DNA of 64,000 nucleotides from Melieria omissa (lineage: Eukaryota; Arthropoda; Insecta; Diptera; Ulidiidae): the NCBI GenBank assembly GCA_963971225.1, contig OZ020269.1, positions 93,895,540 to 93,959,539 of the forward strand, written 5' to 3'. The stretch's first letter is position 1; every line of letters begins with the position of its first letter. Under the pieces are notes generated by a model. That model made no database searches. It was not told the DNA's origin and saw nothing but the letters and a program-made list of their open reading frames with translations. Shown one piece after another: positions 2,746 to 52,388 of this stretch. The translations under genes and the position numbers were made by a program.

Positions 2746-3350
2746 AATTTAATTTTTTTTAATTTATTTTATTTTATTTAATTTAAGTTGATTTGATTTT
2801 GATTTATTTTTTTTATTTTATTTTATTTTTATTTTATTTTATTTTATTTTATTTTATTTTATTTTATTTTATTTTATTTTATTTTATTTTATTTTATTTT
2901 ATTTTATTTTATTTTATTTTGTTTTATTTTATTTTATTTTATTTAATTTTTTTTTTATTTTATTTTATTTTATTTTATTTTATTTTATTTTATTTTATTT
3001 TATTTTATTTTATTTTATTTTATTTTATTTTATTTTATTTTATTTTATTTTATTTTATTTTATTTTATTTTATTTTATTTATTTTATTTTATTTTATTTT
3101 ATTTTATTTTATTTTATTTTATTTTGTTTTATTTTATTTTATTTTATTTTATTTTATTTTATTTTATTTTATTTTTTATTTTATTTTATTTTATTTTATT
3201 TTATTTTATTTTATTTTATTTTATTTTATTTTATTTTATTTTATTTTATTTTATTTTATTTTATTTTATTTTATTTTATTGTATTTAATATTCTTTTATA
3301 TTTTATCTGTTTTTATTTTATATTTGATTTTTTAAATTTTATTTTATTTT
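2746..3350. repeat. (TTTTA)n pentanucleotide array, about 0.6 kb
   Basis: Almost pure ATTTT repeats run from about 2,812 to 3,285, with degenerate AT-rich flanks. One strand is nearly all T and A with no C. The long reading frame across it (Phe, Ile, Leu, Tyr repeats) is a product of the repeat and is not a gene. Confidence 0.95.
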
Positions 3351-6614: not shown

Positions 6615-8532
6615 GAGCTTTTCAATACGGAGAATACGCGCTGGGAGCCTTCCTCGACATATCAGGGGCTTTCAACAATGTCTCCACAGAGGCACTGTTG
6701 GAAGGCCTTGCATCAATTGAGGTGCACCCACCCATACAGGACAGGATTGGTAATCTGTTGAATTGCCGTACAGTGGTAGCGGAGTGGGGCGCAACAACCA
6801 TGACGAGGAAGGCGAACAGGGGCACCCCCCAGGGGGTGTGCTCTCTCCGTTACTATGGAATCTAGTCGTTAACAAGATCCTTTTAAAGTTGAGGGACGGG
6901 GGGCCAAGGCTAACCGCATATGCGGATGACCTAGCCGTTGTCGTCTCAGGCAGGTGTCTCACCTCAATGAGCCAAGTACTCGAGAGGACACTGAAAGTGA
7001 TTAACAACTGGGCAAAGACTGTGGGACTGGAAACAAACCCAGACAAGACGGACTTAGTTCTTTTTACAACAAAGTACAAGATCCCAACCTGGCTTCCTCC
7101 CAAACTGAACAACACCACACTCACCCCCAAAACATCTACTAAGTACCTAGGAGTCATCTTGGACAGTAAACTGTCATGGAAATTGAATGTGGAAGACAGG
7201 AAAAGGAAAGCCTTGAACGCCTTATACGCTTGCAGGAAAATGCTCGGTAAGACTTGGGGCTTATCCCCCCGTCTCACACATTGGATTTACACTGCAGTGA
7301 TTAGACCCATTATGCTCTACGGGATCATAGTATGGTGGACTGCGGTGGACAAGAAGACCTATGCCAAAAGACTCGAGACTGTACAGAGAGCCGCTGGGTT
7401 GTGTATAACAGGCGCAATGCGCACCACTCCGACAGCGGCACTGGACAAAATCTTGGGATTTTATCCAATTGGTCTGACTGCGAAAAGCGTCGCTAAAAAG
7501 GCGGCGCTTAGACTCAAGGTAACTGGACAGCTCACGCTACGACATTACGGCCACAGCAGGTTACACGAAGGGGTAGGCGAAAGCTCAGACTACGCCGTAC
7601 CTCAAGCCAATTTCGACTTCAAACCCCACGTGATCCTAGAACCGGATGGGTGGCGACAGGGGCTCGAGCCCAGCCGCCAATCCTATAACCTGTTCACGGA
7701 TGGATCCAAGATGACAGAGGGAGTGGGATCTGCAGTTTTCTGTCCGGAACTTGACCTTCAACAGTCTTTCCGGCTCCCGGACTACTGCAGCATCTTCCAA
7801 GCAGAGGTACACGCTGCCACAAGAGCGGCGCAACTAGCAATGGATCGCACCCCTCCAGACTCTCGAATAAACATCTATATCGACAGCCAAGCAGCCATAA
7901 CAGCAGCAGCTGGGGTATTGTCAAACTCGATATGCGTACGGAACTGCAAAACCAAATTGGACGAACTCTGTCGCAACAGAGTGGTCACTATCTATTGGGT
8001 ACCGGGTCACAAAGGAGTTGAGGGAAATGAGAAGGCTGATGCGCTCGCCAAAGCCGGGGCACGACTGCCTACGGTTAGCGAGCCAGACATCCATCCACCC
8101 CTCTCCACGCTCAAGACGGAAATAGAAGAGAATATGATTCGTGAAGCGGCTTCCATGTGGGAGAGATCTACATCTCACAGGAGAGCAAAAATCATGCTTC
8201 GCGAACATAATGTCAACAACACAGAGTTTGTACTATCACTCCGAAGAGATGATTGCAAACTATTGACCGGGATACTCACGGGACACTGTCTCACACCGTC
8301 CCACGCTGCCAAACTTGGCTTGGTACCAAGTGATGCATGCACAAGATGTGGTGAAGACAGTGCCAAGGGTACCCTGGAGCATTTGCTGTGCCACTGCCCT
8401 GCTCTCTACAGATCACGGGTCAGCTGCCTCGGATCCGCGTCGTTCCCTTTCTTGGAAAGAGTCGCGGAACAAAAAAGCAGCGACTTACTTAGATTTGGCA
8501 AAACGTTTTTGACAAACTACATACAGGTCTGA
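6615..8532 (+). pseudogene. LOA-like LINE pol fragment: RT palm and thumb, RNase H, zinc motif
   Basis: C-terminal two-thirds of a LINE polyprotein. It opens at RT motif A (FLDISGAFNNV, catalytic Asp), then GTPQG/GVLSPLLWN, then AYADDLAVV with the YADD box intact. The thumb follows with YLGVILDSKLSW and QRAAGLCITG. An RNase H domain comes next with all acidic residues in place: TDGSK (Asp), AEVHA (Glu), YIDSQAA (Asp), and WVPGHKGVEGNEKADALA (His, Asp). A C-terminal Cys/His motif (CTRCGEDSAKGTLEHLLCHC) ends the protein. The frame is broken once, by loss of one G in the run near 6,832-6,836 (five G where six would keep frame); the second part is open from 6,763 to the stop at 8,530-8,532. An RNase H after the RT fits the LOA or I groups. 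Confident as a LINE, less so for the exact clade. Confidence 0.9.
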
Positions 8533-14532: not shown

Positions 14533-14774
14533 GTACAAAAACCAACTTTTAGTATGAGAAATGGTTTCAATGGGAATTACAAGTGATTGTCGTTGTAAAT
14601 AAACACTAACTGAATATTTTAACTATAGAGTAGTCAAGTAAAAAACTGAGTGCAAGTAAAATCGAATACTTGTGGTACTTGCATTCAGTTTCAATAGAAT
14701 GAAATTAATTGAGTATTTGAGTAATTGAGTATTCGAGTACAAAAAGTGATTTCTGGTACGAAAACGGATCACGG
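14533..14774. repeat. Diverged satellite, middle block
   Basis: Continuation of the satellite after the SINE, with TAACTATAGAGTAGTCAAGT near 14,625 and GAGTATTCGAGTAC near 14,730. It ends where the pentamer array starts. Confidence 0.7.
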
Positions 14775-15217
14775 ACATCACATAACATCACATCACATCA
14801 CATCACATCACATCACATCACATCACATCACATCACATCACATCACATCACATCACATCACATCACATCACATCACATCACATCACATCACATCACATCA
14901 CATCACATCACATCACATCACATCACATCACATCACATCACATCACATCACATCACATCACATCACATCACATCACATCACATCACATCACATCACATCA
15001 CATCACATCACATCACATCACATCACATCACATCACATCACATCACATCACATCACATCACATCACATCACATCACATCACATCACATCACATCACATCA
15101 CATCACATCACATCACATCACATCACATCACATCACATCACATCACATCACATCACATCACATCACATCACATCACATCACATCACATCACATCACATCA
15201 CATCACATCACATCACA
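14775..15217. repeat. (CATCA)n pentanucleotide array, about 85 copies
   Basis: An almost perfect run of CATCA units. The His-Ile-Thr-Ser-His reading frame is a repeat artefact. The purity implies recent expansion or homogenisation. Confidence 0.95.
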
Positions 15218-15860
15218 TTACCTGACATGAAATGACGTGACATGATGTGACATGACATTATGTCACATCACATCACATGATTTAATATCACATCACATCA
15301 CGTCACATGGTTTCATGTCATATCATATCACATGACATGACATGACATGACATGACATGACATGACATGACATGACATGGCATGACATGACATGACATCA
15401 CATCACATTACATCACATCACATCACATCACATCACATCACATCACATCACATCACATCACATCACATCACATCACATCACATCACATCACATCACATCA
15501 CATCACATCACATCACATCACATCACATCACATCACATCACATCACATCACATCACATCACATCACATCACATCACATCACATCACATCACATCACATTA
15601 CATAACATCACATTACCTGATATGATATGACATGACATGACGTTATGTCACATCACATCACATTATATCACTTTATATCACATCAAATCACATCACATCA
15701 CATGTTTTCATGTCATATCATACCACTTTACATCACTTTATATCCCATCAAATCACATCACATAACATCATATAACATCACATCACATCACATCACATCA
15801 CATCACATCACATCACATCACATCACATCACATCACATCACATCAGATCACATCAAATGA
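15218..15860. repeat. Mixed (CATCA)n / (CATGA)n block
   Basis: A degenerate stretch (15,218-15,330) leads into about 13 CATGA units (15,331-15,395). These switch to CATCA at 15,396-15,600, decay again at 15,601-15,780, and return to CATCA at 15,781-15,845. The two pentamers differ by one base. Confidence 0.9.
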
Positions 15861-20140: not shown

Positions 20141-21060
20141 TCAGGTGTACAACTTTGCTTCCGCCGTTTTTTCCAAAATTAAAAGCTTTATTGCGAAAAA
20201 GTGCTTACAGATGTATTATTCAAAGTATTGTCCGTCGCTAGCGACAACTTTCTCCCATCTTTCCGGCAATTTTCGGATCCCGGCTCGAAAAAAGGAGTCC
20301 TCTTTTGACGCTATCCTTGAAGCAATCCATTTTTCCAATTCTTCGAAGGATTGAAAATGTTGATCTGCCAGGCCGTGTGCCATCGAACGGAATAGGTGGA
20401 AGTCAGAAGGGGCGACATCTGGGGAATACGGCGGGTGGGGCAAGACTTCCCATTTCAGCGTTTCCAGGTACTTTTTGACCACTTTTGCGACGTGAGGCCG
20501 TGAGGTCCCTCGGTTTCAACTCGTACGGCACCCAGTTTCCTTCTTTCTGAATCATGCCCAGGGCCTTGAGACGTTTTGAAATGGCTTGCTGACTCACTCC
20601 CAACGATTCGGCAAGCTCTTCTTGGGTTTGGCACGAATCTTCATCAAGCAATGCTTCTCGTTGCTCATCTTTGAAGGTTTTTTCTCTTCCACCACCATGT
20701 TTGTCTTCGACATCGAAATCACCATTTTTAAAACGTTGAAACCACTCCCGACACGTTCTTTCACTCAGAGCAGCATCACCGTAAGTTTCTGAGAGAATTC
20801 GATGCGCTTCAGCTGCATTTTTTTTCGAATTGTAACAGAAAAGTAAAACTTCCCGCAAATGGCGAGAATTGGGCACATAAACGGACATTTTCGAGCGTGA
20901 ATAATACGAAAACAAGAACAACTGTCACTGGAACGGCGATGACAATTCGTTAGGCACTGTCCACACTCACTTTAAAGGCATTACCATCTATGTATTTCAA
21001 CCAGCCTCAGCCGGTACAGCCACCTATCGGAAAACGGCGGAAGCAAAGTTGTACACCTGA
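20141..21060 (-). mobile_element. Internally deleted mariner element, 920 bp
   Basis: Perfect 30-bp terminal inverted repeats lie at 20,141-20,170 and 21,031-21,060, starting TCAGGTGTACAACTTTGC. TA dinucleotides flank both ends (20,139-20,140 and 21,061-21,062), the normal mariner target duplication. A full mariner is about 1.3 kb, so roughly 370 bp are missing. With both termini intact it could in principle be mobilised by a transposase from elsewhere, but it cannot make one. Confidence 0.92.
20216..20888 (-). pseudogene. Mariner transposase with catalytic core deleted
   Basis: On the minus strand, ATG at 20,888 opens MSVYVPNSRHLREVLLFCYN. This gives the two helix-turn-helix DNA-binding modules, with CREWFQRFKNGDFDVED and LGVSQQAISKRLKALG, followed by NWVPYELKPRD (about residues 1-128). 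The sequence then jumps in a different frame to HVAKVVKKYLETLKWEV, HPPYSPDVAPSDFHLFRSMA and a C-terminus ending in VASDGQYFE, with stop at 20,216-20,218. YSPDVAPSD carries the third Asp of DD34D. The region with the first two aspartates is gone (about 120-125 residues). The junction, near 20,489-20,507, shows a doubled CCTCACG on the coding strand. The protein style resembles the mellifera group of mariners; that assignment is tentative. Confidence 0.9.
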
Positions 21061-27058: not shown

Positions 27059-27737
27059 TCTCTAAGCAAGAAAGATTAGAATGTTGTGAAGAAGAACGAA
27101 GTTGTGTAGCGAAGAGAAGACTCTGAAAGTAAAGAAGGCTGTGCAGAAGAAGGAAGTTGTGCAGCGAATTCGAATATTCTTAGTGAATAAGAAGGCTAGG
27201 AAGAAAATAAAAATCTGTGAAGAAGAAAGGAGACTGTGATAAGAAAAGAAGCTTGAGAGTCCCTTAGCAAGAAAGATTAGAACGATGTGAAGAAGAACGA
27301 AGTTGTGTAGCGAAGAGAAGACCTTAAAAGTATAAGAAGTCTGTGAAGAAGAAGAACGAAGGTTCTGAAAGAATAAGAAGGCTGTGAAGAAGAAAAAATT
27401 CGTTGCAGAAGTAAGAAGACTGTGCAAAGGAAAGAAGCAGGTGAGTCCTCATGCAAAAAAGATTAGGAAGTTATGAAGACGAATAAAGAGAAGAATCTAA
27501 AAGTATAAGAAGTCTGTGAAGAAGAAGAACGAAGTTCTGTAGTGAAGAGAAGACTCTGAAGGAATAAGGAAGCTATGAAGAAGAAATAAATCTTTGAAAA
27601 AGAAAGAAGACTGTCATAAGGAACGAAGCATGTGAGTCCCTAAGCAAGCAAGATTAAAAGGTTGTGAAGACGAATGTAGTTGTGGAGTGGAAAAAAGATT
27701 TTGGAAAAAAAGAGGAATGGTTGGGTAGAGTAGAGTA
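27059..27737. repeat. Minisatellite, unit about 180-200 bp, 3.4 copies
   Basis: Copies start near 27,059, 27,256, 27,436 and 27,636. Each opens with a TCxCTAAGCAAGAAAGATTA-like block, followed by GTTGTGAAGAAGAACGAAG, TTGTGTAGCGAAGAGAAGAC and CTGAAAGTATAAGAAG. It is a higher-order form of the purine-rich repeat just upstream. Confidence 0.75.
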
Positions 27738-28269
27738 AGAGTAGGAGTAGGAGTAGGAGTAGGAGTAGGAGTAGGAGTAGGAGTAGGAGTAGGAGTAGGA
27801 GTAGGAGTAGGAGTAGGAGTAGGAGTAGGAGTAGGAGTAGGAGTAGGAGTAGGAGTAGGAGTAGGAGTAGGAGTAGGAGTAGGAGTAGGAGTAGGAGTAG
27901 GAGTAGGAGTAGGAGTAGGAGTAGGAGTAGGAGTAGGAGTAGGAGTAGGAGTAGGAGTAGGAGTAGGAGTAGGAGTAGGAGTAGGAGTAGGAGTAGGAGT
28001 AGGAGTAGGAGTAGGAGTAGGAGTAGGAGTAGGAGTAGGAGTAGGAGTAGGAGTAGGAGTAGGAGTAGGAGTAGGAGTAGGAGTAGGAGTAGGAGTAGGA
28101 GTAGGAGTAGGAGTAGGAGTAGGAGTAGGAGTAGGAGTAGGAGTAGGAGTAGGAGTAGGAGTAGGAGTAGGAGTAGGAGTAGGAGTAGGAGTAGGAGTAG
28201 GAGTAGGAGTAGGAGTAGGAGTAGGAGTAGGAGTAGGAGTAGGAGTAGGAGTAGGAGTAGGAGTAGGAG
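27738..28269. repeat. (GGAGTA)n hexanucleotide array, about 88 copies
   Basis: A near-perfect GGAGTA run of about 530 bp. The Pro-Thr and Ser-Tyr frames on the other strand are artefacts, because six is a multiple of three and leaves every frame open. Confidence 0.97.
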
Positions 28270-29451
28270 AGCCCGCCTCTTCTACCCCTACCCTTTCGCC
28301 AGGGCTGCCCATACGCATTTTTATCATAATGATTAACATTTTTCGTGCGTCCTAATGATGAGCATAAATCACGCTCGGCAGCAAAAATGTGAACCAGCCT
28401 CTCAAAGGTGACTGCGCACAGCCTTGCCAATCACATTCAATGCAAATTTGTATTTAAACTTAGATCTGAAGTGTATTTTCAAACAAAAATAGCATTTGTT
28501 ATTTTCTTGCGCATGTCAGCGTTTTCGCCAAAGCATTCGCTGGCGCAGAAAATTTACACATAAACGTGCAGCATAGCCAATTAGTTTGAAACCATAAAAC
28601 CGACTCATTTTAATTTATCGTTTCATTAAGCGAGCGCAGTCCTCCGCTCTTTGCACGAAGTGTTGCGCCCGATTTGCATAAAATGTAAATCGGTTTTAAA
28701 TTTATTCGATTGCTTCCGTTTTGTGTCGTTGTTTCGTTGCGGCTTTTTTTGCTATTGTTGTTGTTTTTACTACTGTTGTCGCCACTTTTGTTCTTATTGC
28801 TGCATTTCAGCAGCAATTATTGTTGTTGTTATTGACAGATTTATGGCAATTTAATGCGCATGAAGCGGTAATCCGATCGTCGATAATTCGTTACTTTCGG
28901 CACGAGCGAGCGCCGCATCGCTTTAACGGTCTCGCTTCAATGTTTGTTTTGTCTTTATTCGGCGTTGATGTCTGCAGCTAATTAAAATTTTACATGTTCA
29001 TTTCTCGCATTCGGTGCGCAACGTTTATTAATCAAAATGTTGCGGCGTTGCCGGCACCCCACACATGCAGCGCTCACTTGTGGCGCAGTCATTTTGAATT
29101 TTCGCCGCTTGTAAGCAAGTTTGAAATACCTTCTCGGTTGGAGCGATTCAATGTGCTGGCGGTGACTTTGAATGCGACTGTGCGAAATTTTAATTTTGCT
29201 GCAAATTTGTACATTGTGTTTGTTGTTGTTGTTGTTGCTGCTATTTTGAGTCATTGGTGGCGAACTGGCGAGGTGAAGAATTTATTTGATTGTTGTCGTT
29301 GAGAAATTTTGTAGGTTATGTACATTTTAAGTGTGGGAGAAAAAAATATTGAAAGATATTATGAAATTAAAGAATTGTGAACAGAAAGCTACATTGGATT
29401 AATATGCTGAATTAGGGCAATGAAAAATATGACAAAAAGCAACACATTTAG
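28270..29451. other. Noncoding DNA, GC-richer with GTT runs
   Basis: Contains TTGTTGTTG stretches near 28,750-28,830 and 29,218-29,240. No exon or element is recognised. Confidence 0.45.
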
Positions 29452-47180: not shown

Positions 47181-47515
47181 ACAGGGTGGTGCAAAAGTTG
47201 TCACCCAGTGTTATTTGGCTCTAATTTGTTTATGAATGAATGAATGTGTGAATAAATAAATAAATGAATGACAAAGTAAAATTTACCTTTGCCGCTCTTT
47301 GCAAAAGTTATAGCATTTGCCAATAGGGTGATGACTTTTGTGCCACGAAGTACGAAAATCTATCCATCTTAAGTCTTTAGTAACAGTTTTAATAGTCTTT
47401 CAGTTTTAATCATATCTTTCAAATCATATCTTCAAAATGAATTCAAAACATTATTAACATTCATGACACTTTTCATATCTCGCAACTGACACTCGCCTGG
47501 ATAACGGTTAACCGC

Positions 47516-47741
47516 TGTACAGATGTACTGTGCTGTATTAGTGATTCGTCGATCCCATCTCCAATCCCAATCTTTCCCTCTCCCTTTGTACTCATGTTCC
47601 CCCTATTTTCTACTCCCCGGCTACGGCCGTTCGTATCGTTTAACGTTTCTTGTGACACTTGTTATCCGTACGTTTACGAATAAACACCCCAAACCGAACT
47701 CCCACCGATTTTTATTTAACCGCTCCGCCGCGATCGAAACA
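47516..47741 (+). repeat. 5' LTR of the Bel-Pao element
   Basis: Starts TGTACAGATGTACTGTGC and ends CGCGATCGAAACA. Carries AATAAA (in ACGAATAAACACC, near 47,679), the likely poly(A) signal. The 3' LTR lies exactly 4,642 bp further on with no difference seen. Confidence 0.93.
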
Positions 47742-47742
47742 T

Positions 47743-47756
47743 TGGTCCTTCGAGCC
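47743..47756 (+). other. Primer-binding site, tRNA-Tyr type
   Basis: TGGTCCTTCGAGCC begins one base after the 5' LTR. Its complement GGCTCGAAGGACCA is the 3' end of eukaryotic cytosolic tRNA-Tyr with CCA (tRNA sequence from memory). The match is 14 nt. Confidence 0.8.
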
Positions 47757-49315
47757 TACGCGAACTCGCGCCGCGCATACAATAAATAATAAACAAAATA
47801 CAAAACAATTAACAATTACAAACACTGATAAAATTTTCAACATTTTCAAACACAAAACAATTCCCAACAAGTGCAACAATTTCAAGTGCAAACACTAAAA
47901 GTGAAAAGACAACAAACAACAACAAAAATTACAAGGGAACAAATGACAAGCCCAAAAAACATAGTGACAACAAGTGGAAAAGTGAAAGAAATGCACAAAT
48001 TGACATCACAAATCAAACAAAAAAGTGCAACGAAAAACTAACTAACCACAAGAAACAGAACAAGTGCAGAAAATTCAAGAAATTAAAAACAAAAAAAAAC
48101 TCCGCGACACATTGGACAGTGCAGTGTAGTGCAACAACAAAAACTCACACATAAAAAACCACAACAACAACACACACCCACAACCCAGAACATAAGACAG
48201 GAAGGAAGACAACAGCCCAAACTACAACAGCATCACAACACAGGAGCGGACCACAGCAAGAGAGGATAGCCCCATTCTCGGGCACGGGGCCCAAAAAACA
48301 GATAAGCGATTCCGCTTTTTTCCGATTTTTATAAATATATATACCCCAATATATACCCACTCCCCAAAATCCAGAATAAAAATTTTCAGTCTGGTACCCC
48401 GCTTATCGTGTGCATATTTCCCTTTGTACAAAACAGCGCAGTGCAGTTAGCAATTCCGCTACTGCACATAATTCGGCGCTTTGTACATTTTCGCCGTCTC
48501 CTTTGTGCGACCTTCGCTGCCGAAGCAGCAAAAACTCCGCTGCTGCCAGCACCCAAAACGCACTGTTCTGGTGCAGTAAATAGGCACGTAGCATTTCTCC
48601 CGCTGCATTCCCACACTCCCACTTGTACGCATTTTCGTGCTTTGTTTTTGTGCGACATAAGCAAGCGCTGAGCAGCGAGCACTCCCGCTGCTGCTTCCAA
48701 GTGCAATTGCTTATTCGCACTTCTGCCTAAGCAATTTACCACTCTCGCTGGCAGAAGTAAGCAAACGCGAATACAGTGGGACGAGTAGCCTATTTTCGCA
48801 GCACATTGTATAATTTTCAATAGTGCTGCACTTAGGCACTCATTGCACAGCTGTTGTCACCCCAAGTAAATACGGTGGGACAAAAACAACCCACCTGTAC
48901 TCAAAACTTTTTAAGCGTTCACCCCATTATTGTTTGGTCCCCTAATACAAACTATAATAAGAATTAATTATTATAGCACGAAAACACTAATTCACTAATA
49001 TATACATACATTGACTATATTAAAAAATTTGTTGTTTATTAATAATTTCCTAAATTCTTGTTTCAATATTTTTAGTTTATTCCCAATATATATATACAAA
49101 TTTCTCGACGCGTTTACACACACAATTGTAAACTTTGATCCTCAACAGAAATACAAATTCGTATTGAAAATTGTTTACACTTTCGTGTATTTTTCCCCAT
49201 TCTTTAATTATCGTTCGCGCGGACGCGGTAAAACTTCCGGTTTATTTCCCATAAACCTTATATTTATATTCAAACGAATTTTAAACCCCCTTTCGAGCTT
49301 TTTTAAGCCATTAAA
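47757..49315 (+). other. Long untranslated leader of the Bel-Pao element
   Basis: About 1.56 kb without a meaningful frame. 47,780-48,250 is A/C-rich with many CAA triplets and almost no G, like an unstructured leader. 48,400-48,830 is GC-richer. The packaging signal should lie here but cannot be placed. Confidence 0.6.
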
Positions 49316-52132
49316 ATGCCTGTTGAGCGATCCCCTAAGCGTCAAATAAACAAAACGGAGTCTCCTTCTCCAAGATGTTCAAAGTCGACTGAGGCACATT
49401 TGACAGTTCCTGTCACTCGCGAGGCACTCAAAACTCGCTCCAAGCCCCCTAGTCCCAAAGCAACCGATCCCAGTGTTGCCACATTTGGTTTTGAGTCCGA
49501 GAGACTCGTGCAATTATGCACAGCGTTTTCATCGGCTCCCATTGAGGATTTGACCACATCACTGGTCCAAATTAAGCAAAAAAATTTGCAAGCCCAATGG
49601 GAGAGGCTAATGCGCGCACATCAGGCAGTCTTCCTTGCTGAGGACAACAGCCAGCCCGACGGTTTCAAAGAGTCGGCTAGACAAAAGATCGACGCCTGCA
49701 CAGACCAATACGAGTTGTGCATGGCTAAGATGTTGGACATCATTAAGATGCTCCAATCTCAGTCCCCCCAGCCTGCTACGCGTATGGAACCGGTTCAACT
49801 CCTAGAACCAGCAAATACTTCCTACATTTGCCTCCAAGTTCCTCCTTGCGACACCGAAACATTTTTCGGGGGCTATGAGCAGTGGCCGTCCTTTCGGGAC
49901 ATGTTTACTGCGGTATACATTAACCACCCCCAGCTCACTCCAGCCCAAAAATTGTATCACCTCCGATACAAAACGCAAGGCCAAGCCGGTGCTATTGTTA
50001 AACAATACGCTCTAACCGATGAGAATTTCAGACTCGCGTGGGAAGCCCTAAGTTCCCGATATGAAAACAAACGCATCCTCGTTGACAGCCAAATTCGATC
50101 TCTATTGAATATCGCTCCTGCCCACACCGAAAATAGTGAGGCATTACAGCGGATCCAGAATTCTATAAACAATTGTCTGTCCGTTCTCAAGTCTCAGGCC
50201 GTAGACACTGACAATTGGGATCCGCTGTTGGTATATATATGCTCCTCCAAATTGCCCGAAGCTACCTTAGCTTTATGGGAGCAGTCATTGACATCCCGGA
50301 AGGATCTGCCCCCCTGGTCACAAATGAATGAGTTTCTGACCTGCAGATACGAGGTAATGGAACGGCTGAATCTGTTTCGGCCCAAGTCGAAACCACAATC
50401 CTCATCTTCCAATGTCCGACCCCCAAGATCCCTAAATTTTCACACTGAAGTGAAAAAGGACTTCGCGTGCAAGCTCTGCAACGCAAATCATTCCGTACGG
50501 ACTTGCCAAAGCTTTACAAGGCTCACCCCCCATAGTCGATTAGCATTTGTGAAAAAGCACAAGATCTGCGTGAATTGTCTTGCTACATCTCACCAAATTC
50601 AGGACTGTACAAGCAATTTCACATGCGTATATTGCCAGAAAAAGCATCATTCTTTGCTTCATCTCCTCAAAGGCAAAACGCAACTCACTCAATCCCCCAA
50701 TCGATCACCGTCGACAACTTCTCTGGTCTCAACGGTTATCCAACAACCAAGCAACAACTCCACCATTAATTCTCCCCTTTCCGATGCGCACCTCAGCACA
50801 TCTTCAAGGCAAAGTACGCTCCCCGTACCAGCCCTTCACTCAAATAATGGCACCCAATCCCTTCTGCCTACGGCAATGGTGTCCATTATGCATTTAGGAA
50901 AGTTGTTCAGAGTTCGAGCGTTGATCGATCAAGGCTCTCAGCGCACTTTCGTCTCCTCGAAGGTCCAGAGACGCTTAAAATTGCCAATCGAGAAATCTAA
51001 CCTCCAGATCTCGGGCATGGGTGGACAGATTGTGAAAACCGCCAACCATATCTGCTTCTTGACATTGGCAGTCCCTAAAACGAGCACAAACCTCCCCGTG
51101 CAAGCAATCGTACTTCCAAAGTTAACGGAATTTCTCCCCCCTTCCAAAATAAACCCCCCAAATTTGAACGCTTTTGCCACGCTAGATCTTGCTGATCCCA
51201 ACCCCTTCGAGGCAGCGCAGATCGATATAGTGATTGGCAGTGATCTCATCCCGCAGATCATACTCGAAGGTTTCCACCGAAATGTATGTGGCAGCTTACT
51301 CGCTCAACAGACAGTATTCGGTTGGATATTAAGCGGTCCAGTAACCCTGTCATCATATTTGACAAATGTCGCCGTGCCACCTCACCATACGCACACTGGT
51401 CCCGCCCTTCGAGAAAACCTTCCTACTCTAAAGGAACCCCTTTCTGACGTGAATGCCGCCCTCAATCCCGTAGGGTTTCCACTCAAGGAAATAAAGGCAA
51501 ATCATGCGGAACCCACCATCCCTGCACACTCAAACTCAAAATGGCAGAAACCCCCATTCGTTGCCAAACGTTTTGCCCCCCGCAGGATGGCTATCGCCCC
51601 CAATGAGACTGCGAAAAAGGCTGCACAACAAGCGTTGGCTCAGCGCCACGCGTCAATATGCACAGCAATTGATGGAAACTGCAGCCCCCTCGCATTTCCA
51701 CATTGCACCCCCCCATACAACAAAACTCGAGCGCACCCATTCCGGGTCCGAGTCAGTCGCCATTCCCGTGCGACCTGTTCTAAGCGCCTTCACTCCTCTG
51801 ACGGCAACTCAAGCGAACCCCATCGCTTGACAAACCGTTCACACCAACTAACGATGTCAACATCATCATTTACAACATCTGAACTCTCTTTTGCAGATCC
51901 AGTGCTAGCGACCCTCGCAGCAGGTGCCCCCTTGACGGCCCCGCACGTCCGTACCGAGCCTAGGCAGCAGAGAGGCCCTCAGCGCACTCCCCAGCGCTCC
52001 GGCATCGTGAAACGGCGACAAACCCCCAGCCGTCAGCCCAACCTACAGCCAGGCAGCCGCGCATCACCGCCAAATCATCACCAGCCAGCCGTGCGCCGTA
52101 ACCCTGAGCGTGACCCCGGCACCCCTATATAA
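49316..52132 (+). CDS. Bel-Pao Gag-protease polyprotein, 938 aa, without RT/RNase H/integrase
   Basis: Structural and protease polyprotein of the element. Residues about 170-355 form the Pao-type gag domain (DUF1759 family), with GYEQWPSFRDMF and LTPAQKLYHLRYKTQGQA. Three Cys/His zinc motifs follow: C385-C388-H392-C397, C418-C421-H426-C431, and C437-C440-H444/H445-H449. A retropepsin-type protease (DUF1758 family) comes next, with ALIDQGSQ (catalytic Asp538) and the closing FGWILSGP near 668-675. The protein should assemble particles and cleave itself. Residues about 680-938 are Pro/Arg/Ser/Thr-rich, with no polymerase or integrase motif, and end in TAA-type termination before the 3' LTR. The start ATG has AAAA before it. 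The frame has no stop or shift over 2.8 kb, which argues for recent selection. The tail may be out-of-frame or rearranged remains of pol; I cannot tell. Confidence 0.88.
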   Translation: MPVERSPKRQINKTESPSPRCSKSTEAHLTVPVTREALKTRSKPPSPKATDPSVATFGFESERLVQLCTAFSSAPIEDLTTSLVQIKQKNLQAQWERLMRAHQAVFLAEDNSQPDGFKESARQKIDACTDQYELCMAKMLDIIKMLQSQSPQPATRMEPVQLLEPANTSYICLQVPPCDTETFFGGYEQWPSFRDMFTAVYINHPQLTPAQKLYHLRYKTQGQAGAIVKQYALTDENFRLAWEALSSRYENKRILVDSQIRSLLNIAPAHTENSEALQRIQNSINNCLSVLKSQAVDTDNWDPLLVYICSSKLPEATLALWEQSLTSRKDLPPWSQMNEFLTCRYEVMERLNLFRPKSKPQSSSSNVRPPRSLNFHTEVKKDFACKLCNANHSVRTCQSFTRLTPHSRLAFVKKHKICVNCLATSHQIQDCTSNFTCVYCQKKHHSLLHLLKGKTQLTQSPNRSPSTTSLVSTVIQQPSNNSTINSPLSDAHLSTSSRQSTLPVPALHSNNGTQSLLPTAMVSIMHLGKLFRVRALIDQGSQRTFVSSKVQRRLKLPIEKSNLQISGMGGQIVKTANHICFLTLAVPKTSTNLPVQAIVLPKLTEFLPPSKINPPNLNAFATLDLADPNPFEAAQIDIVIGSDLIPQIILEGFHRNVCGSLLAQQTVFGWILSGPVTLSSYLTNVAVPPHHTHTGPALRENLPTLKEPLSDVNAALNPVGFPLKEIKANHAEPTIPAHSNSKWQKPPFVAKRFAPRRMAIAPNETAKKAAQQALAQRHASICTAIDGNCSPLAFPHCTPPYNKTRAHPFRVRVSRHSRATCSKRLHSSDGNSSEPHRLTNRSHQLTMSTSSFTTSELSFADPVLATLAAGAPLTAPHVRTEPRQQRGPQRTPQRSGIVKRRQTPSRQPNLQPGSRASPPNHHQPAVRRNPERDPGTPI

Positions 52133-52157
52133 TTGCAATATGCAATGGCGGGCGCGA

Positions 52158-52383
52158 TGTACAGATGTACTGTGCTGTATTAGTGATTCGTCGATCCCAT
52201 CTCCAATCCCAATCTTTCCCTCTCCCTTTGTACTCATGTTCCCCCTATTTTCTACTCCCCGGCTACGGCCGTTCGTATCGTTTAACGTTTCTTGTGACAC
52301 TTGTTATCCGTACGTTTACGAATAAACACCCCAAACCGAACTCCCACCGATTTTTATTTAACCGCTCCGCCGCGATCGAAACA
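52158..52383 (+). repeat. 3' LTR of the Bel-Pao element
   Basis: Identical by eye to the 5' LTR. The stretch just before it (GCAATGGCGGGCGCGA) is only weakly purine-rich, so the plus-strand primer site is not obvious. ACCGC follows directly. Confidence 0.93.
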
Positions 52384-52388
52384 ACCGC

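What the first reader, a model, noticed from the sequence alone, without database searches (positions are those of the whole stretch)
47516..52383. Recently inserted Bel-Pao element that keeps gag-protease but has no pol
Seen: 226-bp LTRs identical by eye, a 5-bp ACCGC target duplication, a tRNA-Tyr primer site and an unbroken 938-codon gag-protease frame. The roughly 3 kb of reverse transcriptase, RNase H and integrase is missing. Known: Bel-Pao elements carry all of these in one polyprotein. Inference: this is a nonautonomous subfamily that supplies its own particle protein and protease and borrows polymerase and integrase from relatives. Such a gag-only strategy is known for some plant LTR elements; I do not know it to be described for Bel-Pao.
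Basis: partly seen in the sequence, partly recalled or inferred. Interest (0 to 1): 0.75.

Follow-up and report, generated by a model that had tools for sequence, protein, structure and literature searches.

The report
Fly retrotransposon keeping gag, lacking polymerase
This is one young copy of a family of Bel-Pao jumping genes in a fly that lost its polymerase genes but kept, under natural selection, the gene for its particle shell and protease, so it most likely moves by borrowing enzymes from a full-length cousin in the same genome.

Summary
In detail: identical 226-bp LTRs, an ACCGC target duplication, a tRNA-Tyr-type primer site and a 938-codon gag-protease frame without RT, RNase H or integrase domains. 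It is not a one-off deletion. The same tail was found at 62 places in the 490-Mb host genome (40, a capped list; 22 more). Of 16 copies with both LTRs delimited, 13 have perfect 5-bp target duplications and 10 have identical LTRs, so the family moves in the deleted form. Of the 40 closest gag matches, 38 carry the pol-less tail and none was seen to run into RT. Gag is under purifying selection among copies (capsid dN/dS median 0.12, protease 0.34). A full-length sister family lives in the same genome (Gag 72% identical, same primer site, related leader). Correction: the tail holds two short RT relics, one in a shifted frame, so it arose by internal deletion. Mobilisation in trans is inferred, not shown. 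Precedents are Bel-21_AG (Anopheles), mouse IAP I-Delta-1 and plant TR-GAG.

The parts
47511..47515 (.). Target-site duplication ACCGC, left copy
47516..47741 (+). 5' LTR, 226 bp, TG...CA, identical to 3' LTR
47743..47756 (+). Primer binding site TGGTCCTTCGAGCC (tRNA-Tyr type); identical in the full-length sister (L048:604)
47759..47770 (+). Short palindromic motif CGCGAACTCGCG just after the primer site, near-identical in the sister (CGCGAACCCGCG), not seen in family L049; possible packaging or dimer signal (inference)
47757..49315 (+). Untranslated leader, 58-67% similar to the sister's leader (A-rich, so weak); no match to family L049's leader
49316..52132 (+). Single open frame, 938 aa plus stop: Gag (DUF1759 residues 183-327; zinc knuckles at 385, 418, 437), aspartic protease (LIDQGS at 536, VIGSDL at 639), then relic-derived tail
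49316..51373 (+). Gag-protease part, 72% aa / 77% nt identical to the full-length sister; similarity to full-length elements ends near 51372
51416..51511 (+). Relic of reverse transcriptase just after the YVDD box, in the gag frame
51510..51650 (+). Relic of the RT connection region, read in a different frame from gag
51895..52059 (+). Possible relics of the sister's integrase end (51895-51957) and of its 3' region (51964-52059); weak, only in linked tblastx scoring
52133..52157 (+). Polypurine-tract region ending GGCGGGCGCGA before the 3' LTR; similar module in the sister
52158..52383 (+). 3' LTR, 226 bp
52384..52388 (.). Target-site duplication ACCGC, right copy

Best explanation
This is a recent copy of a non-autonomous Bel-Pao family that descends from a full-length element by internal deletion of pol. 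The family kept Gag and protease in one frame and kept the replication signals (LTRs, tRNA-type primer site, leader, polypurine region). Shown: multi-copy, shared junction, own target duplications, sister family, selection on Gag and protease. Inferred: its RNA makes Gag-protease particles that preferentially carry its own RNA, a related full-length element supplies RT, RNase H and integrase in trans, and the cDNA is integrated with a 5-bp duplication. Selection on Gag is best explained by such a cis advantage.
For: Tail at 62 places seen: 40 (capped list) plus 22 of 24 further gag loci checked. 13 of 16 delimited copies have perfect 5-bp TSDs and 10 of 16 identical LTRs, lengths 4.7-5.1 kb; L011 also has a TSD. 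All 11 LTR pairs among the 40 scored LTR hits are 4.35-4.96 kb apart, none near 8 kb. 29 pol-less copies form one clade apart from three full-length gags (stem 0.21, support 1.000; 10 of 39 copies were dropped for poor coverage). dN/dS in 15 intact-frame copies, 105 pairs: capsid median 0.12 (93 of 100 informative pairs p<0.01), protease 0.34 (61 of 91), N part 0.37 (17 of 96), NC 0.44 (28 of 95). LIDQGS and VIGSDL kept in 15 of 15. Full-length sister: ORF 1820 aa without stops, LTRs 250 bp identical, flanks both ATCGT, 40 scored RT copies 96-100% identical. Mosaic copies (L010, L044 against the window) point to template switching between co-packaged RNAs.
Against: No expression, particle or mobilisation data. 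The sister's LTR is only about 63% alike and its LTR ends differ (TGGCTAAATG... / ...TTTTTCA against TGTACAGATG... / ...GAAACA), so its integrase may not be the one used. L012 and L044 have no TSD and L023 only 4 of 5. L009 and L011 have 5' and 3' LTRs only 82-83% alike. Pairs in the dN/dS test are not independent, and copies were chosen for open frames. Zinc knuckles: the first is lost in L021 and the third in L025.
Confidence: 0.85

Rival explanations
1. The pol-less form is a dead deletion derivative. Copies spread passively, and low dN/dS reflects selection in full-length ancestors before the deletion or gag moved in by recombination.
For: Recombination is rife; 24 of 39 copies lack a frame of 889 aa or more (counted); relics show the tail began as junk.
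Against: Divergence among pol-less gags (dS about 0.1-0.2 for most listed capsid pairs) arose after the split from the sister (dS 0.75-1.4), with capsid dN/dS 0.03-0.14 in most listed pairs. None of the 40 closest gags was seen to be attached to RT.
Confidence: 0.08
2. Gag of the pol-less element acts mainly on others: it either supplies extra Gag to the full-length sister (a two-part system) or poisons its particles (interference).
For: Bel-Pao elements encode Gag and Pol in one frame, so extra Gag could matter (established knowledge, recalled); sister and pol-less families are both recently active.
Against: Sister and pol-less Gag differ at 28% of residues. Nothing here separates helping or poisoning from self-packaging.
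Confidence: 0.05
3. A domesticated host gag gene rather than a mobile element.
For: Purifying selection on Gag.
Against: Identical LTRs, TSDs at different sites and 62 dispersed places.
Confidence: 0.01

Closest known systems
Bel-21_AG, Anopheles gambiae (PMC3212995, section 11 read)
   Same: Short Bel family: 3803 nt, 227-nt identical LTRs, one 927-aa frame, called non-autonomous by its authors.
   Different: Three copies, no conserved domains recognised, PBS for asparagine, dN and dS not different (neutral). Whether its frame is Gag could not be tested here.
Achilles, Bactrocera oleae (PMC4580426, abstract, passages and section 17 with its subsection read)
   Same: Tephritid Bel element with tRNA-Tyr primer site and LIDQGS protease motif.
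   Different: Gag-Pol of 1632 aa with RT and integrase; 672-bp LTR. A possible relative of the full-length partners, not compared by sequence here.
Mouse IAP I-Delta-1 (PMC6466679, passages)
   Same: Internal deletion leaving one fused frame; non-autonomous; needs proteins in trans; its fusion protein helps in cis; common among new insertions.
   Different: Endogenous retrovirus; the 1.9-kb deletion cuts gag and pol, so Gag too is needed in trans. Here Gag and protease stay whole.
TR-GAG elements of plants (Chaparro 2015 as cited in PMC10025401, passages)
   Same: LTR elements that keep the gag domain and lack pol.
   Different: Plants; Copia or Gypsy type (recalled). Here Bel-Pao, protease kept, animal host.
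CM-gag of Culex pipiens (only the reference title seen in PMC3286476)
   Same: Described as a reiterated element with only a gag gene.
   Different: Superfamily and structure not seen; paper not held.

Membership tests
Bel-Pao superfamily | Bel-Pao Gag (DUF1759) with zinc knuckles | tested here: met
   DUF1759 E 2.9e-28; knuckles at 385, 418, 437
Bel-Pao superfamily | Aspartic protease of Bel type | tested here: met
   (below Pfam cut-off) and LIDQGS / VIGSDL, as in the sister; aligned with fly Bel proteins
Bel-Pao superfamily | RT-RNase H-integrase in the same frame (autonomous form) | tested here: not met
   only short RT relics, so it is filed as a non-autonomous derivative
Bel-Pao superfamily | TG...CA LTRs and 5-bp target duplication | tested here: met
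Gag-only non-autonomous LTR elements (TR-GAG-like) | LTRs, PBS and polypurine region with gag but no pol | tested here: met
   protease is kept in addition
Gag-only non-autonomous LTR elements (TR-GAG-like) | Transposes in the deleted form | tested here: met
   13 of 16 delimited copies with perfect 5-bp TSD
Trans-mobilised partner pair | Full-length partner with shared cis signals in the same genome | tested here: inconclusive
   Same PBS and related leader and PPT module, but LTR about 63% alike and LTR ends different
Trans-mobilised partner pair | Mobilisation depends on partner enzymes | not testable with these tools
   needs experiment
Achilles family | 80% sequence rule against Achilles KT280063 | not tested
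   record not held

The most novel reading that the evidence does not exclude
Pol-less Bel-Pao is a recurrent, stable way of life in flies. It arose at least twice in tephritid-type flies: here with protease kept, and in Bactrocera dorsalis and B. neohumeralis, where eight protein records share one junction that drops protease and most or all of pol. The out-of-frame pol relics in this family have become a new, selected C-terminal extension of Gag: in 9 of 10 pairs tested the gag frame of the tail has the lowest dN/dS of the three frames. Against it: the Bactrocera records are gene models that may hide introns; in one pair (L020-L025) another frame is lower; the tail's dN/dS is 0.48 at the median and only 44 of 90 pairs have p<0.01; no other protein matched the tail.
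Probability: 0.35. Interest if true: 0.7.

Novelty: new variant of a known kind. Interest (0 to 1): 0.52.

Why it matters
It gives an animal, Bel-Pao case in which a pol-less element has lasted long enough to radiate, while selection kept both its particle protein and its protease. That makes it testable whether a Gag works mainly for the RNA that encodes it, and how single-frame Bel-Pao elements balance Gag against Pol. It also warns annotators that Bel gag-only gene models can be whole mobile families. Literature searches for a gag-only or non-autonomous Bel-Pao family gave Bel-21_AG as the nearest; subscription papers and Repbase were not searchable.

Tried and rejected
Single-copy deletion: rejected. 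Pol hidden in a shifted frame: only two short relics. Captured host domain in the tail: no protein match among 5.8 billion for residues 688-938 (1966 candidates, none at E<=0.01). Species name: not found; the sister Gag has no close named match (best 55% Eurosta, 53% Rhagoletis), so 'tephritid-type fly' is inference. Recent exchange between pol-less leaders and the sister's: no copy of 21 tested is markedly closer. Other full-length families (L047, L049) as closest partner: Gag only 48-49% identical.

Dropped rows: 10 of 39 copies left out of the tree (L033, L034, L036-L041, L043, L045); 24 of 39 left out of the dN/dS count (15 used). In one search, L009, L011, L014 and L025 had no 3' LTR end matched by the script and are not in the 16.

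Full report
What is there. The window holds a complete LTR element at 47516-52383. The two LTRs are 226 bp and identical, flanked by ACCGC on both sides. A primer site TGGTCCTTCGAGCC follows the 5' LTR after one spacer base. One frame of 938 aa runs from 49316 to 52132, 25 bp short of the 3' LTR. It carries the Bel-Pao Gag domain DUF1759, three zinc knuckles and an aspartic protease with LIDQGS and VIGSDL. The protease matches are below Pfam's cut-offs, but the region aligns with fly Bel polyproteins through residue ~686.

What is missing, and what is left. Pfam finds no RT, Peptidase_A17, RNase H or integrase. tblastn of 120 fly Bel proteins against the tail finds two relics: 51416-51511 in the gag frame, matching RT just after the YVDD box, and 51510-51650 in a shifted frame, matching the connection region. 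Both match the full-length sister's DNA at 72-73%. Two further relics near 51895 and 51964 are weak. So the element is an internally deleted descendant of a full-length one, with several deletions, and the remaining bits are read as a new tail.

It is a family. A search of the 490-Mb host genome with the tail gave 40 scored matches at 85-100% identity, a capped list from 766 candidates. The 40 best matches to the gag-protease DNA (1268 candidates) are 92-100% identical. 16 of them carry a tail already listed. For the other 24 I read 600-800 bp downstream: 22 have the tail, at 73-93% over the aligned pieces, and 2 (L073, L074) have neither tail nor RT and look truncated. No gag among these 40 was seen to run into RT. 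The 40 scored LTR matches contain 11 pairs, all 4.35-4.96 kb apart and none near 8 kb.

It transposes in this form. Of the window plus 38 fetched loci, 16 had both LTRs delimited: 13 have a perfect 5-bp TSD, mostly different from one another, 1 has 4 of 5, and 2 have none; 10 of 16 have identical LTRs. 15 of 39 keep a frame of 889-939 aa, 11 of them 938 or 939.

Selection. In 105 pairs of the 15 intact-frame copies, the capsid region has median dN/dS 0.12 (IQR 0.09-0.17; 93 of 100 informative pairs p<0.01), protease 0.34 (61 of 91), N part 0.37 (17 of 96), NC 0.44 (28 of 95) and tail 0.48 (44 of 90). Pairs share ancestry, so p-values are descriptive. In the tail the gag frame has the lowest dN/dS in 9 of 10 pairs; in L020-L025 another frame is lower (0.28 against 0.93), and in L044-L046 the difference is small (0.56 against 0.62). 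Selection on the tail is therefore suggested, not secure.

Why the selection is not simply inherited. A tree of 29 pol-less and 3 full-length gags puts the pol-less ones together behind a long stem (0.21, support 1.000). Synonymous distance to the sister is 0.75-1.4, against about 0.1-0.2 for most listed pol-less pairs. With the result that the closest gags are pol-less, this places most of the divergence after pol was lost. Only 3 full-length gags were sampled, so an unsampled full-length relative inside the clade is not fully excluded.

The likely partner. Searches with P0008 and P0001 found many full-length Bel elements with open frames of 1782-1857 aa. The closest Gag of three sampled belongs to the group of C4:41949484 (L048): 72% aa and 77% nt, against 48-49% aa for L047 and L049. 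That copy has identical 250-bp LTRs, ATCGT on both sides, the same primer site and a near-identical palindrome after it, and a leader related to the pol-less leaders, while L049's leader gave no match. Its RT has 40 scored copies at 96-100%, so the group was recently active. Against it: its LTR is about 63% alike and its LTR ends differ. The 3' ends of pol-less LTRs are themselves variable (AAACA, TTTACA, TATACA, ATTCA, TTTTCA), only CA being constant.

Recombination. Against the window, L010 is 100% identical from the gag start region through most of the tail but only 63-93% in the leader, while L044 is 98-100% identical in most of the leader but 88-100% in gag and 80-90% in the tail. Such mosaics fit template switching between co-packaged RNAs; gene conversion after insertion is possible too. 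L011 has a TSD although its LTRs are 82% alike.

Mechanism. Shown: anatomy, family, junction, TSDs, selection, sister family. Inferred: LTR transcription, Gag-protease particles, preferential packaging of own RNA, RT and integrase from a full-length relative, integration. The cis-advantage step rests on the logic that an element gaining nothing from its own Gag would not keep it; mouse I-Delta-1, whose fusion protein acts in cis (passages), is a tested analogue in another group.

Known relatives. Bel-21_AG has the same size class (3803 nt, 927-aa frame) and is called non-autonomous, but showed no domains and no selection in three copies. TR-GAG elements (passages) are the plant counterpart. 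Searches for a gag-only or non-autonomous Bel-Pao family in the held library gave no other. Passages of the Bel-Pao survey (PMC3118150) do not mention non-autonomous elements.

A second case, as a lead. Eight protein records (P0090, P0091, P0129, P0136, P0139, P0141, P0146, P0147) of Bactrocera dorsalis (7) and B. neohumeralis (1) share a Gag whose protease is missing at one and the same junction; five of them keep a pre-RT stretch and five end at the connection box read in a shifted frame. They are gene models, and introns cannot be excluded.

Verdict. The finding holds and is stronger than its reader could show. It is a new variant of a known kind (gag-keeping non-autonomous LTR element) in a superfamily where the nearest described case was poorly characterised.

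Noticed in passing
L011 (G000:C3:68832230-68838444) and L009 (G000:C2:94540639-94546853): 5' and 3' LTRs only 82-83% alike although the inner 3' half matches the window at 96-100%; L011 has a TSD. L009's 5' LTR is preceded by the end of another copy's inner region, so it looks like part of a tandem.
   Followed up: partly
L015 (G000:C3:49479424-49489423): Two copies in tandem: a 2.7-kb stretch repeats at 99.1% identity, 4.66 kb apart.
   Followed up: no
Bactrocera protein records P0090, P0091, P0129, P0136, P0139, P0141, P0146, P0147: Bel Gag gene models lacking protease at one shared junction, some with out-of-frame pol relics: a possible second pol-less family.
   Followed up: partly
window 6763-8532 (+): 589-aa frame that looks like the end of a non-LTR retrotransposon (RT and RNase H by eye).
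   Followed up: no
window 20403-20921 (-): 172-aa frame that looks like a truncated mariner-type transposase (by eye).
   Followed up: no
window 2793-3335, 14725-15225, 27614-28430: Long simple-repeat arrays that give spurious open frames.
   Followed up: no
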